From NCBI RefSeq assembly GCF_001590835.1, contig NZ_LTAQ01000012.1:124001-188000 (forward strand): a stretch of DNA of 64,000 nucleotides, given 5' to 3'. The notes beneath the pieces were generated by a model. The model was not told where the DNA came from. It did no database searches and worked only from the letters and a program-made list of their open reading frames with translations. The position numbers and the translations under genes are program-made. Origin of the DNA: Bacillus gaemokensis. Its GTDB lineage: Bacteria; Bacillota; Bacilli; Bacillales; Bacillaceae_G. Positions 5,278 to 25,032 of this stretch are shown here, piece after piece. The stretch's first letter is position 1. Each line of letters opens with the position of its first letter.

Positions 5278-7329
5278 CTACCATGGAAAATATTTTTTCC
5301 ACCAACTGTCCTTTTTCTTCTCTTTTCCAGCCTTTTCGAATTCTTCTTTATCATCAACATGATCCGTACAATATTCAGTCGGTTCTGTTCCTTTTGCAAA
5401 ATACATTTTCACAGAAGTAGGGCACCCCTTGGTCGCAATTTTTCCGTTTTCAGGATTGATATTTAAAGAAACGATGTCACTTGGTTGTTTGAATTCCTTG
5501 TTAGGTTGTCCCTCTAATCCTTTTTCCATCGTACTGGCCCATATTTTTTTTGCGTAACCTTGTTCTGCCGGATTTGAAATAGATTTTGGCTGATCGTATC
5601 CTATCCAAACGCCCGTTACAAGCTGAGGAGTGAAACCAATCATCCAACTATCTGTTTCTGTAGAACCAGATTTTCCTGCATATGTGCGGGATAGTTTTGG
5701 AAGAAGGGATTGCCCTGTAACGGAGGCATATCCGCTTAGCTTTTTATTGAACATACCGGTCATCATTTCTTCCATTACAAACACATTGCCTTTATCGAGA
5801 ACTTGTTTGCTTTCTAAATGTGCATCATATAAAATATTGCCTCCATGATCGACAACACGGCGAATGAAGGTCGGCTTTACTTGCTTCCCGCCGTTGGCAA
5901 ACAGACTATAGGCACTAACCATTTCAATTGGTTTTACAGGAGAAGTACCAAGGGCAAGGGACGGTACATCTTTTAGAGAACTTTTAATACCAAACTGTTT
6001 GGCAGTTTTCGTAAGTGAATCTTCACCTAAAAATAAGTGTGTTTTCACAGCGTATACGTTATCTGATACGGCAAGGGCCTGCGCCATTGTTACAAAATCA
6101 TCGGCGTAGTAGTCATTATAGTTTTTGGGGTTATATTTAGAAACACCATCACCTAATGTAAATACTGTATATTCACTTTTTAAGCGAGTTGCTGGTGTAA
6201 ACCCTTTTTCTAATGCAGCGTAATATAAAAACGGTTTAAAGGTAGAACCCGGTTGACGAGCGGCTTGGATTGCTCTATTAAATTGGCTCTCTTTGTAATC
6301 TTTTCCGCCGACAAGAGCTGCTACTTCACCTGTTTTCGGGTTCATTGAAACAAGAGCCGTTTGTATATTTGTTGTGTCCGGGATTGTATCCTTTACAGCT
6401 TGTTCGGCTATTGTTTGCAGTTTTGGGTCTAATGTCGTATAAATACGAAGCCCACCTCGCTGTAATGTTTGTTCAGTTAACCCAACATCATGAAGGAGAG
6501 ATGTTTTTACAGCATCTTGGAAATAAGGTGCGACTTCTGCAACTTCTTTCGTTTCTAGCGAAGCAAATGTCAGTTTTTCTTTTTTTGCAGAGCGTGCTTG
6601 TTCTTTCGTGATATAGCCTTGCTCTACCATTTCATCTAAAATGAGCAATTGTCGTTGTTTTGCTCGTGCTTCTTTTAAATAAGGAGAATATAAGCTAGGG
6701 CCTTTCGGAATACCAGCAAGCATACTGGCCTCTGCCAAAGTTAAATTTTCCGCTGTTTTATCGAAATACATCCGGGCAGCTGCTTCAATACCGTAAGCGC
6801 CGTGTCCGTAATAAATCGTATTTAAATATCCTTCTAAAATATGATTCTTACTGTAATTGACTTCAAGCCGAACGGTATACATTGCCTCTAGTAGCTTTCG
6901 TTTCCATGTCTTATCGTGATCTAAATAGAGGTTACGGGCATATTGCTGCGTAATGGTACTAGCACCTTGTACTTTTGCCATTGCTTTTAGATCTGCAACG
7001 ATTGCGCCAGCAATCCGTTTTATATCGAAACCATGGTGATTGTAGAATCTCTGATCTTCAATGGAGAGTGTAGCCTCTCTAACATAAGGAGACATTTGAT
7101 CAAGAGAGATGTTATAGCGTTTTTGCATCCCGTTGCTTTGTCCCATGACAGAATCATCATTAGCATAAAAGAAACTAGTCTGGGGGACGGCGATAGGAGG
7201 CGGTCCCATAATTTTCGCCGCAATAATGATAATAAAAAAGGAAAAAACAAAGAAAAGAACGCATGAAAAAAGTGCGGTGAAGAAAAGACGTTTATACTTT
7301 TTGAGCTTTGGATTCATAGTTTGATCCAT
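5278..7329 (-). CDS. pbpG: class A penicillin-binding protein (PBP2d, PbpG)
   Basis: A 683-residue bifunctional peptidoglycan synthase. After one N-terminal membrane anchor come the transglycosylase motifs (SIEDQRFYNHHGFD, GASTITQQ, GYLNTIYYG). The transpeptidase domain follows with STFK (Ser near residue 362), SDN, and KSGST. It polymerises lipid II and crosslinks the glycan outside the membrane. B. subtilis PbpG, its syntenic counterpart, is a SigF-dependent forespore PBP used for germ-cell-wall synthesis. I infer the same role. The start at 7329 is favoured because the GAGGGG site touches the earlier ATG (7338) but lies 9 bases before this one. Confidence 0.92.
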   Translation of the reverse strand: MDQTMNPKLKKYKRLFFTALFSCVLFFVFSFFIIIIAAKIMGPPPIAVPQTSFFYANDDSVMGQSNGMQKRYNISLDQMSPYVREATLSIEDQRFYNHHGFDIKRIAGAIVADLKAMAKVQGASTITQQYARNLYLDHDKTWKRKLLEAMYTVRLEVNYSKNHILEGYLNTIYYGHGAYGIEAAARMYFDKTAENLTLAEASMLAGIPKGPSLYSPYLKEARAKQRQLLILDEMVEQGYITKEQARSAKKEKLTFASLETKEVAEVAPYFQDAVKTSLLHDVGLTEQTLQRGGLRIYTTLDPKLQTIAEQAVKDTIPDTTNIQTALVSMNPKTGEVAALVGGKDYKESQFNRAIQAARQPGSTFKPFLYYAALEKGFTPATRLKSEYTVFTLGDGVSKYNPKNYNDYYADDFVTMAQALAVSDNVYAVKTHLFLGEDSLTKTAKQFGIKSSLKDVPSLALGTSPVKPIEMVSAYSLFANGGKQVKPTFIRRVVDHGGNILYDAHLESKQVLDKGNVFVMEEMMTGMFNKKLSGYASVTGQSLLPKLSRTYAGKSGSTETDSWMIGFTPQLVTGVWIGYDQPKSISNPAEQGYAKKIWASTMEKGLEGQPNKEFKQPSDIVSLNINPENGKIATKGCPTSVKMYFAKGTEPTEYCTDHVDDKEEFEKAGKEKKKDSWWKKYFPW

Positions 7330-20845: not shown

Positions 20846-20909
20846 TCTCCTTTTGGGGGTGTTTTGAAAGGGGGTGTATTAATTATTTGATGGGTCTCAT
20901 AGGGATTTC

Positions 20910-20923
20910 ATGACAATTGTCAT
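20910..20923. promoter_or_regulatory. palindromic operator candidate upstream of the ABC/kinase remnant
   Basis: ATGACAATTGTCAT is a perfect 14-bp palindrome, followed after 6 bp by TCATGTCATGA-like half sites. It sits about 85 bp before the remnant operon. It may be the binding site of the NarL-type response regulator encoded there. This is inference from position only. Confidence 0.4.
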
Positions 20924-21005
20924 ATTCATGTCATGACGTATTTTACTGTTTTCCATCTCTTGCAATTTATACAATGTAAATATAAGGACCGACGGAGGTG
21001 GAGAG

Positions 21006-21362
21006 ATGGAAAAGATTATTGAAGTAAATGGTGTTTCGAAAACATTTAAACATAAAAAGGCTGTAAATAACGTTTCATTTCATGTGGAGAAGGGACAGAT
21101 TGTTGCACTACTTGGGCCGAATGGCGCAGGGAAAACAACAACAATCTCAATGATGCTTGGGCTAAAGGATCCATCAGAAGGAAGTGTTTCTATATTTGGA
21201 AAGAGTCCTAAACATCGGGCTGTTCGTAATCGCCTTGGTGCAATGCTGCAAGAAGTAAGTGTAATCGATAGTATATCGGTGGAGGAAACAAATTCAGGAA
21301 CGTTGTTAACAGTAAAAGTTCCAATTGTCATTAGAACAGGAAAAGATGGGGTGAGAGCATGA
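21006..21362 (+). pseudogene. in-frame fusion remnant: ABC ATPase N-terminus joined to histidine-kinase C-terminus
   Basis: A 118-residue ORF. Residues 1 to about 95 are the start of an ABC ATPase, with Walker A GPNGAGKTTT and the Q-loop region LGAMLQEVSVIDSISVEE. The signature LSGGQ, Walker B and H-loop are absent. From about residue 97, NSGTLLTVKVPIVIRTGKDG reads as the last strand of a histidine-kinase ATPase domain (G-T-x-L-x-V-x-x-P). The stop overlaps the response-regulator start (ATGA), as a kinase gene normally would. This fits a YvfRSTU-like operon (ATPase, permease, kinase, regulator) that lost about 3 kb between positions 21285 and 21300, keeping frame. It cannot work as a transporter ATPase. 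A strong GGAGGTGGAG site precedes it. Confidence 0.8.
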
Positions 21363-21961
21363 TTCGAATTATTATTGCTGAAGATCAGCGGATGCTGCGC
21401 GGGGCACTAGGAGCCTTGCTTGATTTAGAAGACGATATTGAAGTGGTTGGGCAAGCTGAGAATGGGGAAGAGGCTTTGAAGCTAATTGAATCATTGCAGC
21501 CGGATGTCAGTATTATGGATATCGAAATGCCGATTCAAAGTGGATTGGATGTTGCTGAAACATTACAGAAGAAAAAATCACCATGCAAAATGATGATCTT
21601 AACAACATTTGCGCGGCCAGGTTATTTTGAAAGAGCAATGAAAGCTGGCGTTCATGGGTATTTATTAAAGGATAGCCCAAGTGAAGATTTAGCAGCCGCA
21701 ATTCGCAATGTGATGAAGGGGAAACGAGAGGTTTCTCCTGAATTAATGTTTGGGTTGTGGCAAGAGAAAAATCCATTATCAGATCGTGAGAAAGAAGTAC
21801 TTCTGTTAGCGAAAGAAGGAAAAACAGCAAATGAAATTGCGAAGGCACTTTATCTTTCGCCTGGTACAGTGCGGAATTACATTTCAGAGGTACTAACGAA
21901 ATTAGATGCTAAAAATAGAATTGAAGCTATTACAATTGCAGAAGAAAAGGGATGGATATAG
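21359..21961 (+). CDS. yvfU: NarL/LuxR-type response regulator (YvfU-like), orphaned
   Basis: A 200-residue two-component regulator. The receiver domain shows AEDQ acidic residues near the start, phospho-acceptor Asp54 in SIMDIEMP, Thr in LTTFARP and Lys in LLKDSP. The C-terminal LuxR-type helix-turn-helix contains LSDREKEVLLLAKEGKTANEIAKALYLSPGTVRNYISEV. The protein appears intact. Its presumed sensor kinase has been reduced to the fusion upstream, so it is now an orphan. It may be silent, or driven by another kinase or acetyl phosphate. It is closest in kind to B. subtilis YvfU/DesR. Confidence 0.85.
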   Translation: MIRIIIAEDQRMLRGALGALLDLEDDIEVVGQAENGEEALKLIESLQPDVSIMDIEMPIQSGLDVAETLQKKKSPCKMMILTTFARPGYFERAMKAGVHGYLLKDSPSEDLAAAIRNVMKGKREVSPELMFGLWQEKNPLSDREKEVLLLAKEGKTANEIAKALYLSPGTVRNYISEVLTKLDAKNRIEAITIAEEKGWI

Positions 21962-22002
21962 AAAAAGATGTTTACCGACATGCATGGGTAAACATCTTTT
22001 TT
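21962..22002. terminator. bidirectional terminator yvfU/nprB
   Basis: AAAAGATGTTTACC/GGGTAAACATCTTTTTT lies between convergent genes. Confidence 0.9.
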
Positions 22003-22003
22003 G

Positions 22004-23764
22004 TTAGTTTCCTTTTTGTATTTCTACGACTTTATTTACTTTTGCTAAAGATTTATATCCATGTGCTTGGAATGCTTTTTCAAATTCTGTTGAAGTAGTA
22101 TTACCATATAAATCTTTTGCAGCTTGTACAATGTGAGATTGTAGGGATTCGAAATCTTCTGCTGAAGTAGCATAGTTTTGTAAAGCACGCATAACCACTT
22201 TACTTACTTTTTCGTTTCCTTGCTTTTGAACAGATACACCGTTGTATGTTTTTCCTTCAGCTAATTGGTATAGGACATGGCTAATAATACCTGAATTCAC
22301 ATGGGATTCTTGATCATTTCCATCATTATAAAATTCTTGTAAGTTTGTATATAGCTTTTGTCCACCGTCGCCAATTTCTTTCGGGATATCTCGGATTGTT
22401 AGACCACCTAATGTATCGCCCATAATCCAATTTCCTTTATCTTTTTTTACATAAAATTCGATTTGTGTACCCCAGAAATCTGCAAGGCCTTCATTCAGTG
22501 CATCTGTTTCAGTATTTGGATATTTGATCATATTATTTTTTGTTGTGCCACTAAATACAGCATGTCCGAATTCATGAGCCGTTACATCAAGAGCAGAAGT
22601 TAATTTACCATTTAAACCATCTCCGAAAACCATCTGATTCCAAGCCGGATGCCAAAATGCATTTACATAGTTTTCTTTGATACCATCACTCACTTCAGTA
22701 GAATCAAATCCATGCACACTTGCAACAACTTTTGTGTCTTTATTATCGTAGCTTTTTAAATTGTGTTCTTTCTTAAAGTAATCATAAATATTGCTCATGT
22801 TTTTCATAGCGCCAGCTGCTTCTTTATCTGCAAAATTAGTCGTGTTACTAGAAATAAGCGTACCAGGGTAACCTGCTTGACTCTCGCCACCTTTTGCATC
22901 CGCGTAATTTGCATTATAAATATAAATGCCCTTACCACGAGATAAGTCGGCTAAATAAAACTTGCCATCAGCACCTTTTGCGATATTAAATAATACATTT
23001 TCTTGTAATGCATTTATGCCAGTTCCCTGTTCTTTAGCTGGAGATAGCGAAGGGAGGGTTGCTTTGTTAATAGGGGTATTCTCTTTATTTTTAATAAATT
23101 TCTCCTGAAACAGTACGTCTCTATTTCTTAAATCAATGATTGCGTTGCCACTTATAACTTGGGCATTGTTTTCATATGTAAAAGTAATGACTTCTGCATA
23201 TGTGAAACTCTCATCTTTTTTCTTATAAATGACAGTTTCACTAGAAAACTCTTTTTCAATTGCATCACTCGAAATTTGTAATGTATTACGTAATGAAGAT
23301 TTTACTTCATTTTTCGACAAAAAATTTGTTATAGTAAGATTAGGTTGCTGTTCTAAATTTTGGGCGACCTTACCACTAACAGTCGTAATTACCCCATTTT
23401 TATCTACTTTAACAATGATGTCTTGACCGTATACTTTATAGCTTTTATAAGTTTGGGCAAGACGTACTTCTGTTTGATTTTCTTTTATTTCTTTGTTAGT
23501 AGGTTGAAAATCAACATTTTTTTCAGTGGTAACTTGTTCTTGTTGCGCTTTTGCCCCATCTACTTCACCTTTTAAGTATTTTTTAGCAATGTTTTCTTTT
23601 GTATCATTTTGCGGTTCGGTTAATTTACCAATTGTTAATCCAGGCTGAGCAATTTCAACTTTGACATCATTTTTATCAACTTCCTGGGCATGAATAACTT
23701 CTGTCGATAAAGGACAGAGTAGCCCGAAAGTGAGAAGTGCACTAGTAATTTTTTTATAATTCAT
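22004..23764 (-). CDS. nprB: neutral protease B, M4 bacillolysin family
   Basis: A 586-residue secreted zinc metalloprotease precursor. It has a signal peptide (about residues 1-27), a long FTP/PepSY-type propeptide (to about residue 250), and the M4 catalytic domain. The zinc motif is HEFGH at about residue 395, with the third ligand in ALNEGLADFWG. The transition-state His lies in ESHVNSGIISH. It degrades extracellular protein. It diverges from plcR and shares the PlcR box at 23835, matching the known nprB-plcR-papR arrangement of B. cereus and its place in the PlcR regulon. The start at 23764 is chosen for GGGAGTG six bases ahead. Confidence 0.92.
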   Translation of the reverse strand: MNYKKITSALLTFGLLCPLSTEVIHAQEVDKNDVKVEIAQPGLTIGKLTEPQNDTKENIAKKYLKGEVDGAKAQQEQVTTEKNVDFQPTNKEIKENQTEVRLAQTYKSYKVYGQDIIVKVDKNGVITTVSGKVAQNLEQQPNLTITNFLSKNEVKSSLRNTLQISSDAIEKEFSSETVIYKKKDESFTYAEVITFTYENNAQVISGNAIIDLRNRDVLFQEKFIKNKENTPINKATLPSLSPAKEQGTGINALQENVLFNIAKGADGKFYLADLSRGKGIYIYNANYADAKGGESQAGYPGTLISSNTTNFADKEAAGAMKNMSNIYDYFKKEHNLKSYDNKDTKVVASVHGFDSTEVSDGIKENYVNAFWHPAWNQMVFGDGLNGKLTSALDVTAHEFGHAVFSGTTKNNMIKYPNTETDALNEGLADFWGTQIEFYVKKDKGNWIMGDTLGGLTIRDIPKEIGDGGQKLYTNLQEFYNDGNDQESHVNSGIISHVLYQLAEGKTYNGVSVQKQGNEKVSKVVMRALQNYATSAEDFESLQSHIVQAAKDLYGNTTSTEFEKAFQAHGYKSLAKVNKVVEIQKGN

Positions 23765-23834
23765 CTCTAACACTCCCAATCTAGTATTTGTATGAGATGA
23801 ATTTTAAAGAAAATTCGATAAATTTCATATATAT

Positions 23835-23850
23835 TATGCAATATTACATA
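23835..23850. promoter_or_regulatory. PlcR box between nprB and plcR
   Basis: TATGCAATATTACATA matches the PlcR box TATGnAnnnnTnCATA exactly. It lies 71 bp before nprB and 82 bp before plcR, so it can serve both plcR autoactivation and nprB activation. Confidence 0.93.
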
Positions 23851-23858
23851 TCAAAAAA

Positions 23859-23865
23859 TGTCGAA
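23859..23865 (+). promoter_or_regulatory. Spo0A box in the plcR promoter
   Basis: TGTCGAA is an exact Spo0A-box core, nine bases after the PlcR box. Spo0A repression of plcR through such boxes is established in B. thuringiensis and B. cereus. ATTCGATA near 23813 is a weaker second match. Confidence 0.65.
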
Positions 23866-23931
23866 AAACCATTATTGTAGTGGTATGACAACTTAAAAAG
23901 TTAGATTTCTGTAATGGGATGGTGAGCTATT

Positions 23932-24786
23932 ATGCACGCAGAAAAGCTAGGAGCCGAAATAAAGAAAATTAGAATATTGAGGGGTTTAACACAAAAACAG
24001 TTGTCTGAGAATATATGTCATCAATCAGAAGTGAGTAGGATTGAGTCAGGAGCAGTATACCCAAGTATGGATATACTTCAAGGAATTGCAGCAAAATTAC
24101 AAGTTCCCATCATTCATTTTTATGAAGTTCTCATTTATTCTGATATTGAAAGAAAGAAGCAGTTTAAGGATCAAATTATATTACTTTGCAAACAAAAGAA
24201 GTATAAGGAAATTTACGATAAAGTTTGGGCTGAACTCCAAAAAGGTAAATATCATTCTGAATTTCAACAATTTCTTCAGTGGCAGTATTATTTATCAGCG
24301 TATATGTTAAAAAAGGTGAATTATGAATATTGTATTTTGGAACTAAAAAAATTACTAAATCAGCAATTAGTAGGGATTGATGTATTTCAAAATTTGTACA
24401 TAGAAAATGCCATAGCAAATATTTACGCAGAAAATGGGTATTTCAAAAAAAGTATTGAGTTATTTGAAAGTATTTTAAAACAATTGGAATCTCTACATAG
24501 CAATGAAGAATTTGCTGTAAAGATTAGGTATAATCATGCTAAAGCGCTATACTTAGATGAACGATATGAAGAGGCATTTTACCAAGTTAGAAAGGCGATT
24601 GCAATTTCTTGTCGTATTAACAGCATGGCATTAATTGGACAATTATATTATCAAAAAGGTGAGTGTCTTGAAAAATTAGGATATGCAGAGGAAGAGATTA
24701 AAGGAGCCTATGAAAAAGCACTGTTCTTCTTTGATTTATTAGAGTTACATGCGTATAAGGAGACACTATTAAAAAAATTAATTTAA
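23932..24786 (+). CDS. plcR: PlcR, quorum-sensing virulence regulator
   Basis: A 284-residue RNPP-family regulator. The N-terminal helix-turn-helix (residues about 6-62) has the near-invariant stretch TQKQLSENICHQSEVSRIES. After a linker helix come five TPR-like helical repeats (about 70-284) that bind the PapR heptapeptide. The frame is intact through the codon region that is nonsense in B. anthracis, so the protein should be active. It activates genes for phospholipases, haemolysins, enterotoxins and proteases through the box TATGnAnnnnTnCATA. Such boxes flank it on both sides. The C-terminal repeats differ from the ATCC 14579 protein as I remember it, in line with a different peptide type. 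Confidence 0.96.
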   Translation: MHAEKLGAEIKKIRILRGLTQKQLSENICHQSEVSRIESGAVYPSMDILQGIAAKLQVPIIHFYEVLIYSDIERKKQFKDQIILLCKQKKYKEIYDKVWAELQKGKYHSEFQQFLQWQYYLSAYMLKKVNYEYCILELKKLLNQQLVGIDVFQNLYIENAIANIYAENGYFKKSIELFESILKQLESLHSNEEFAVKIRYNHAKALYLDERYEEAFYQVRKAIAISCRINSMALIGQLYYQKGECLEKLGYAEEEIKGAYEKALFFFDLLELHAYKETLLKKLI

Positions 24787-24814
24787 AAGGATATGTGAAT
24801 TGGGGTTTTATGGA

Positions 24815-24830
24815 TATGCATTATTGCATA
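24815..24830 (+). promoter_or_regulatory. PlcR box of papR
   Basis: TATGCATTATTGCATA is an exact PlcR box 55 bp before the papR ATG, with TATAGT (24853-24858) as a candidate -10. It gives papR its own autoinduced promoter. Confidence 0.93.
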
Positions 24831-24885
24831 TAATATGGATAAATTTTCATGGTATAGTGAAAGAAAAATGTGTGGGTGATGGAAT

Positions 24886-25032
24886 ATGAAAAAGCTACTT
24901 ATTGGTAGTGTGTTGACGTTAGCAATGGTATGGGGTATTTCTTTAGGAGATACATTTGTAGAGAAAAGTCAGGTAATAACTGATAATAATCAAGAAGTAC
25001 AATTAGCTTCTGATTTACCGTTTGAATATTAA
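24886..25032 (+). CDS. papR: PapR signalling-peptide precursor
   Basis: A 48-residue precursor with an N-terminal secretion signal (MKKLLIGSVLTLAMVWGISL), a short spacer, and the signalling sequence ASDLPFEY at the extreme C-terminus. Both length and layout match PapR. The peptide is exported, trimmed, re-imported by Opp and bound to the PlcR TPR domain. The mature heptapeptide would be SDLPFEY. The ones I recall end in PFEF or PFEH, so the final Tyr marks a specificity variant. The ribosome site GGTGATGG is weak. The gene is followed directly by a bidirectional terminator. Confidence 0.95.
   Translation: MKKLLIGSVLTLAMVWGISLGDTFVEKSQVITDNNQEVQLASDLPFEY

What the first reader, a model, noticed from the sequence alone, without database searches (positions are those of the whole stretch)
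21006..21961. An ABC-transporter/two-component operon collapsed into an in-frame ATPase-kinase fusion with an orphan response regulator
The ORF at 21006 begins as an ABC ATPase (Walker A intact) and, after about residue 96, becomes the last strand of a histidine-kinase ATPase domain, ending in the ATGA overlap with the response regulator. About 3 kb (rest of the ATPase, permease, most of the kinase) must be missing. The frame is preserved, so translation into the regulator is kept. The regulator looks intact and is left without its sensor.
Basis: partly seen in the sequence, partly recalled or inferred. Interest (0 to 1): 0.75.

Follow-up and report, generated by a model that had tools for sequence, protein, structure and literature searches.

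The report
Collapsed sensor-transporter operon, regulator left behind
In this Bacillus cereus-group sequence a deletion of about 2.4 kb has removed most of a known four-gene sensor and transporter operon, leaving its promoter region and an intact regulator gene but no sensor at that spot; it is a real but small natural loss in a known system that influences the virulence regulator gene plcR.

Summary
The ORF at 21006-21362 is the first 95 codons of a YvfR-type ABC ATPase joined in frame to about the last 23 codons of a YvfT/DesK-type histidine kinase, ending in the ATGA overlap with an intact YvfU/DesR-type response regulator. In 67 intact relatives the ATPase and regulator starts lie 2,745-2,942 bp apart (median 2,780); here 353. 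So about 2.4 kb is missing, not 3 kb. The operon is known (BC5355-BC5354-yvfTU, next to plcR), and kinase relatives sense cold. The kinase's own promoter should be lost too. A conserved operator-like palindrome (20910-20923) remains upstream, so the regulator probably sits behind its own binding site without its kinase. Among 72 related loci five others are disrupted: a Cohnella case resembles this one, out of frame and with other breakpoints, and in one genome a matching kinase lies elsewhere, a warning that 'orphan' needs the whole genome, which is not held. No conspecific sequence was found, so exact breakpoint, flanking repeat, strain frequency and assembly error stay untested. Modest interest.

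The parts
20908..20936 (+). Operator-like element upstream of the operon (palindrome ATGACAATTGTCAT at 20910-20923, then a half-site)
   Evidence: The core TGACAnnTGTCA lies within 200 bp upstream of the ATPase start in 65 of 71 relatives; in the window it starts 95 bp upstream. The full 29-base element occurs once in the window, but that pattern was copied from the window, so its expectation of 0 proves little. PMC7726353 describes Pdes-like regulator-binding repeats in these promoters (passages). Binding in this strain is inferred.
21006..21290 (+). 5' remnant of the YvfR-type ABC ATPase gene, codons 1-95, Walker A intact; everything after, including signature motif and Walker B, absent
21290..21291 (.). 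Deletion junction (position good to a few bases; no undeleted conspecific sequence to fix it)
   Evidence: ATPase homology ends at codon 95; the kinase-tail profile aligns to residues 92-116
21291..21362 (+). 3' remnant of the YvfT-type histidine kinase gene, about the last 23 codons plus stop, in frame with the ATPase remnant
21359..21961 (+). Intact YvfU/DesR-type response regulator (receiver plus LuxR-type HTH), 4-base overlap with the kinase remnant
   Evidence: Pfam Response_reg 1.4e-24, GerE 1.3e-16; DesR 4ldz_A E 9.3e-76; one departure (C51S) at 64 conserved columns
21961..22002 (+). Stem-loop followed by T run after the regulator gene, probable terminator
   Evidence: -19.5 kcal/mol, z -7.39. 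The consensus scan did not list it. [quoted passage not shown]

Best explanation
The locus is a decayed yvfRSTU-type operon (BC5355-BC5354-yvfT-yvfU in B. cereus). One internal deletion of about 2.4 kb joined codon 95 of the ATPase gene to about the last 23 codons of the kinase gene. Shown by sequence: the two remnants, the intact regulator, the retained operator-like palindrome and the stem-loop. Inferred: the 118-aa fusion cannot act as an ABC ATPase or as a kinase and is at most a leader ORF. The regulator is transcribed only from the operon's first promoter, because the region of the separate yvfT promoter fell in the deletion. Without YvfT the regulator is mostly unphosphorylated, apart from any cross-phosphorylation, so its targets are not switched on by cold. 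The strain should then resemble the laboratory yvfTU mutant of ATCC 14579, with plcR expression reduced by up to about half in stationary phase and little other effect, which would explain why the loss is tolerated. About 0.95 that it is a deletion remnant of this operon; about 0.6 for the functional outcome.
For: Junction and homologies. 67 of 71 related loci have the full gene order with a nearly constant span. Flanking synteny: the aminopeptidase upstream is 81% and the GGDEF-EAL protein downstream 60% identical to the neighbours of the intact operon in E. panaciterrae. PMC2588459 (abstract, background, results up to the PlcR-regulon section, discussion): operon, yvfT transcript start 25 bp before its start codon, plcR at 50% in the mutant, PlcR regulon mostly unaffected. 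PMC7726353 (abstract and passages): kinase relatives respond to cold; Pdes-like repeats upstream of the transporter genes. Operator core in 65 of 71 relatives.
Against: No undeleted conspecific sequence and no reads, so an assembly error is not excluded. A kinase gene elsewhere in the genome is possible: in G044 an intact 369-aa kinase lies apart from a transporter-regulator operon that lacks one. PMC2588459 found no autoregulation of the operon in ATCC 14579 under its conditions and no shared motif by MEME among affected promoters. The scan for sigma-70-like promoters at the locus gave 4 sites against 4.0 expected, so the promoter itself is not identified here. Allowing two mismatches, the palindrome is found once in the window while 3.69 are expected by chance, and that one is at the operon, not near plcR; an effect on plcR would be indirect or use another site. 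DesR-type regulators can be phosphorylated by non-cognate kinases, so 'unphosphorylated' is a guess.
Confidence: 0.62

Rival explanations
1. The regulator still works: it is driven by a kinase encoded elsewhere (a relocated YvfT, a DesK-like kinase or another) or by acetyl phosphate, and the deletion mainly removed the transporter.
For: The regulator has one departure at 64 conserved columns; 64 regulators of other loci have 0 to 10. G044 shows a split arrangement with an intact kinase elsewhere. BA5598 and SA1313 phosphorylate DesR, and YvfU can act at the des promoter when overexpressed with YvfT (PMC7726353, abstract and passages). The operator-like site is retained.
Against: A recent deletion would also leave the regulator intact. 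In B. subtilis YvfT/YvfU and DesK/DesR do not cross-talk at normal levels. No genome is held in which to look for another kinase.
Confidence: 0.25
2. Assembly or sequencing artefact: the real genome has the full operon.
For: PMC2588459 reports yvfTU near plcR in all 14 strains of its Figure 1 legend; no reads are available here.
Against: The junction is clean and in frame, the flanks are syntenic, and internal deletions of the same operon with other breakpoints stand in two other species' records, though those too are unverified drafts.
Confidence: 0.07
3. The 118-aa ORF is a selected fusion protein, for example a leader peptide for translational coupling or a nucleotide-binding partner of the regulator.
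For: Frame kept through the junction; 40 of 63 relatives have the 4-base kinase-regulator overlap that suggests translational coupling.
Against: About one in three deletions keeps frame by chance; none of 72 loci shows such an in-frame fusion; everything after codon 95 of the ATPase, including signature and Walker B, is missing; the Cohnella case is out of frame with an intact regulator.
Confidence: 0.04

Closest known systems
BC5355-BC5354-yvfT-yvfU of B. cereus ATCC 14579 (PMC2588459)
   Same: Same place beside nprB-plcR-papR, same regulator type, stem-loop at the operon end
   Different: Here the permease, most of the ATPase and most of the kinase are gone, and with them the region of the separate yvfT promoter
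DesK/DesR and YvfT/YvfU of B. subtilis; BA5598/BA5597; SA1313/SA1314 (PMC7726353)
   Same: Regulator related to DesR (PDB 4ldz); these promoters are described as carrying Pdes-like repeats
   Different: No kinase at the locus
Collapsed operon in Cohnella sp. GbtcB17 (L024)
   Same: An ATPase start and a kinase end flank the gap; regulator intact; palindrome ATGACAATTGTCAT retained
   Different: Breakpoints at about ATPase codon 8 and kinase residue 326; out of frame; at E up to 1e-20 the only kinase match in that genome lies beside a DesR-like regulator
DegU of Listeria monocytogenes, an orphan response regulator
   Same: A regulator called orphan in print (PMC8711649, title and start of abstract in a search listing)
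   Different: Another regulator (kinship not tested); reported as functional, which is not established here

Membership tests
YvfRSTU (ABC transporter plus DesKR-like two-component) operon | Response regulator of the YvfU/DesR type | tested here: met
   82% identity to E. panaciterrae; DesR structure E 9.3e-76
YvfRSTU (ABC transporter plus DesKR-like two-component) operon | Complete ATPase, permease and kinase genes upstream | tested here: not met
   Only ATPase codons 1-95 and about 23 kinase codons remain; it is a remnant, not a working member
YvfRSTU (ABC transporter plus DesKR-like two-component) operon | Palindromic operator about 90 bp upstream of the ATPase start | tested here: met
   Window 20910-20923; core in 65 of 71 relatives
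YvfRSTU (ABC transporter plus DesKR-like two-component) operon | Place next to plcR-papR in the B. cereus group | tested here: met
   PlcR 284 aa matches 2qfc, E 3.8e-155; protease and PapR-like ORFs alongside
Orphan response regulator | No cognate kinase gene beside it | tested here: met
Orphan response regulator | No cognate kinase gene anywhere in the genome | not testable with these tools
   No whole genome is held for the window
Orphan response regulator | Functional without its kinase | not testable with these tools
   Needs expression data

The most novel reading that the evidence does not exclude
Loss, decay or removal of the kinase from this operon while regulator and operator stay is a recurrent, tolerated or even favoured outcome (window; Cohnella GbtcB17; G065; G044 by apparent relocation). 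It would leave a kinase-independent or re-wired, self-controlled regulator that tunes plcR in some B. cereus-group strains.
Probability: 0.12. Interest if true: 0.5.

Novelty: new member of a known kind. Interest (0 to 1): 0.3.

Why it matters
It looks like a natural counterpart of a published laboratory mutant: a B. cereus-group strain that has lost the YvfT sensor beside plcR. It lets one ask whether sensing through this operon matters for plcR in nature, and how a regulator fares once its kinase is gone. The other disrupted loci suggest that the operon comes apart repeatedly, though the numbers are small and partly from draft genomes.

Tried and rejected
Pfam and NCBIfam searches with the 118-aa ORF gave only the ATPase half; the 23-residue tail alone gave nothing in Pfam or PDB, so a kinase-tail profile was built instead.

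Search for a close relative of the window: genome contigs (58 loci, best 82%), 19 genomes of the family of G001, viral contigs (one weak hit over 29 residues), plasmids (7 records, 65-77% identity), phages (no match). A search of the same 19 genomes for PlcR gave 2 matches of 30% and 55% identity, so none looks like a B. cereus-group genome. Breakpoint microhomology was therefore not assessed.

A second copy of the operator near plcR or nprB was sought and not found. The ATPase query was two residues too long at its start; searches used the corrected start. An earlier count gave 302 aa and 2,755 bp for the E. panaciterrae ATPase and span; the corrected values are 299 aa and 2,749 bp.

The idea that only the kinase, never the regulator, is lost was dropped: Bacillus methanolicus DE0196 (L055) has a regulator frameshift with a full-length kinase match, and the loci were found through the regulator, which biases the count. 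As a check from the kinase side, of the 40 best kinase matches (258 of 397 genomes had a match; the list shown is capped) 39 have a regulator beside them (coordinates; G056); the exception is G044.

A review on Bacillus fatty acids (PMC4525379, passages) and a toxin study of B. cereus strains with identical yvfTU (PMC1888693, passages) added nothing decisive; the latter found YvfTU not responsible for toxin differences between its strains.

Full report
What is there. The ORF at 21006-21362 and the regulator ORF at 21359-21961 are as described, with the ATGA overlap. The first 95 residues are an ABC ATPase start with Walker A: Pfam covers profile positions 1-79 of 137, and identity to the Ectobacillus panaciterrae ATPase is 71% over residues 1-95. 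At codon 96 the homology ends abruptly. The remaining 23 residues fit the C-terminal strand of the operon's kinase: a profile from 63 relatives' kinase tails puts this ORF first among 2,520 six-frame ORFs of the window (E 3.7e-4, next 0.58). Of 1,000 shuffles of the tail 860 were reported with a score and none reached the real one. Pfam and PDB did not recognise the tail on its own.

Which operon. The neighbours are methionine aminopeptidase (TIGR00500), a thermolysin-like protease (weak match, below the model's cut-off), a full-length PlcR (PDB 2qfc, E 3.8e-155), a short ORF where papR is expected, and a GGDEF-EAL protein. The names nprB and papR rest on their order, as given in PMC2588459; the short ORF matched no family. 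This is the plcR locus of the B. cereus group. In E. panaciterrae the intact operon lies between relatives of the same aminopeptidase (81% identity) and GGDEF-EAL protein (60%). In the B. cereus group the operon is known. PMC2588459 (abstract, background, results up to the PlcR-regulon section, and discussion) reports yvfTU near plcR in the 14 strains of its Figure 1 legend, the ABC genes BC5355-BC5354 upstream in ATCC 14579, a separate yvfTU transcript starting 25 bp before yvfT, and plcR expression at 50% in a yvfTU mutant two hours into stationary phase, with most of the PlcR regulon unaffected. PMC7726353 (abstract and passages) shows that the kinase relatives BA5598, SA1313 and, with its own regulator, YvfT respond to cold, and describes regulator-binding repeats like those of Pdes upstream of the transporter genes.

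How much is missing. Compared were the 58 loci of the genome-contig scan, 40 regions that I chose by hand, mostly full-length regulator matches, from the capped match list of a 397-genome draw (293 genomes with a match), and six further regions. After removal of loci with identical regulator DNA this gave 99 regulator loci, of which 71 have the ATPase homologue upstream. In 67 of the 71 all four genes are in place by my criteria (permease match over 180 residues; kinase match over 300 residues ending within 120 bp of the regulator). Their start-to-start distance is 2,745-2,942 bp, median 2,780; single values can be off by up to about 20 bp, because they run to the start of the regulator match. 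The window has 353 bp, so about 2.4 kb is gone.

Other disrupted loci. The four exceptions among 71 are: L053 Cytobacillus citreus (ATPase residues 1-80 run into the regulator from about residue 70, with a stop at the joint); L091, genome G044 (no kinase between permease and regulator, but an intact 369-aa kinase, 46% identical to the E. panaciterrae one, with no ATPase, permease or regulator match in the 7.5 kb fetched around it); L112, genome G065 (kinase in broken frames, regulator intact); L055 Bacillus methanolicus DE0196 (regulator frameshift, kinase match full length). A fifth, L024 Cohnella sp. GbtcB17, is outside the 71 because too little ATPase remains: about eight ATPase codons, then kinase residues 326-366 in another frame, then an intact regulator. 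In L024 and L053 the breakpoints differ from the window's, so I take them as independent events. These are partly draft genomes, and single-base breaks may be sequencing errors.

The control site. A perfect palindrome ATGACAATTGTCAT starts at 20910; its core begins 95 bp upstream of the ATPase start. Within two mismatches it is the only match in the window, where 3.69 are expected by chance, so the count itself proves nothing; the search with the whole 29-base element used a pattern copied from the window. The evidence is conservation: the core stands within 200 bp upstream of the ATPase start in 65 of 71 relatives. It fits the repeats described in PMC7726353, whose figure I did not see. Against a strong role, PMC2588459 found no autoregulation and no common motif in affected promoters. 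The sigma-70-type scan gave no more sites than chance (4 against 4.0).

The regulator. It departs at one of 64 columns that are at least 95% conserved among 64 regulators of other loci (C51S); the 64 themselves have 0 to 10 departures. It looks intact, as expected if it works or if the deletion is recent. A strong stem-loop follows it.

How it most likely works. Transcription from the operon promoter runs through the short fusion ORF into the regulator. The fusion lacks most of the ATPase and the kinase core, so it should have no enzymatic role. The regulator has no kinase at the locus, so it is most likely idle or weakly active, and the strain should behave like the yvfTU mutant. This is inference. 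A relocated or non-cognate kinase is the main rival.

Limits. No whole genome is held for the window, and no close relative of it was found in the collections searched. Hence there is no exact breakpoint, no repeat test, no strain frequency, no read check and no genome-wide kinase search. In the held library 25 papers name yvfT or yvfU; I saw titles and starts of abstracts of all 25 and opened three in part (PMC2588459, PMC7726353, PMC1888693). Nothing I saw describes this natural deletion; most papers of subscription journals are not in that library.

Noticed in passing
window 22004-25032 compared with L001 6001-8753: In Ectobacillus panaciterrae the GGDEF-EAL gene follows the operon directly; in the window the protease, plcR and papR-like genes lie between, as if that block came in beside yvfU in the B. 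cereus lineage.
   Followed up: partly
window 23932-24786 and 24886-25032: PlcR is full length (284 aa) and the PapR-like ORF ends in SDLPFEY. A full-length PlcR argues against B. anthracis, in which it is truncated (start of abstract of PMC10017872).
   Followed up: partly
L133 1480-2589 (genome G044): An intact YvfT-type kinase gene stands alone, away from a transporter-regulator operon that lacks one: apparently a natural split of a two-component system.
   Followed up: partly
L053 5742-6384: Cytobacillus citreus: a different internal deletion of the same operon that also removed most of the regulator's receiver domain.
   Followed up: partly
L055 about 5953-6581: Bacillus methanolicus DE0196: frameshift in the regulator with a full-length kinase match; real or sequencing error unknown.
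   Followed up: no
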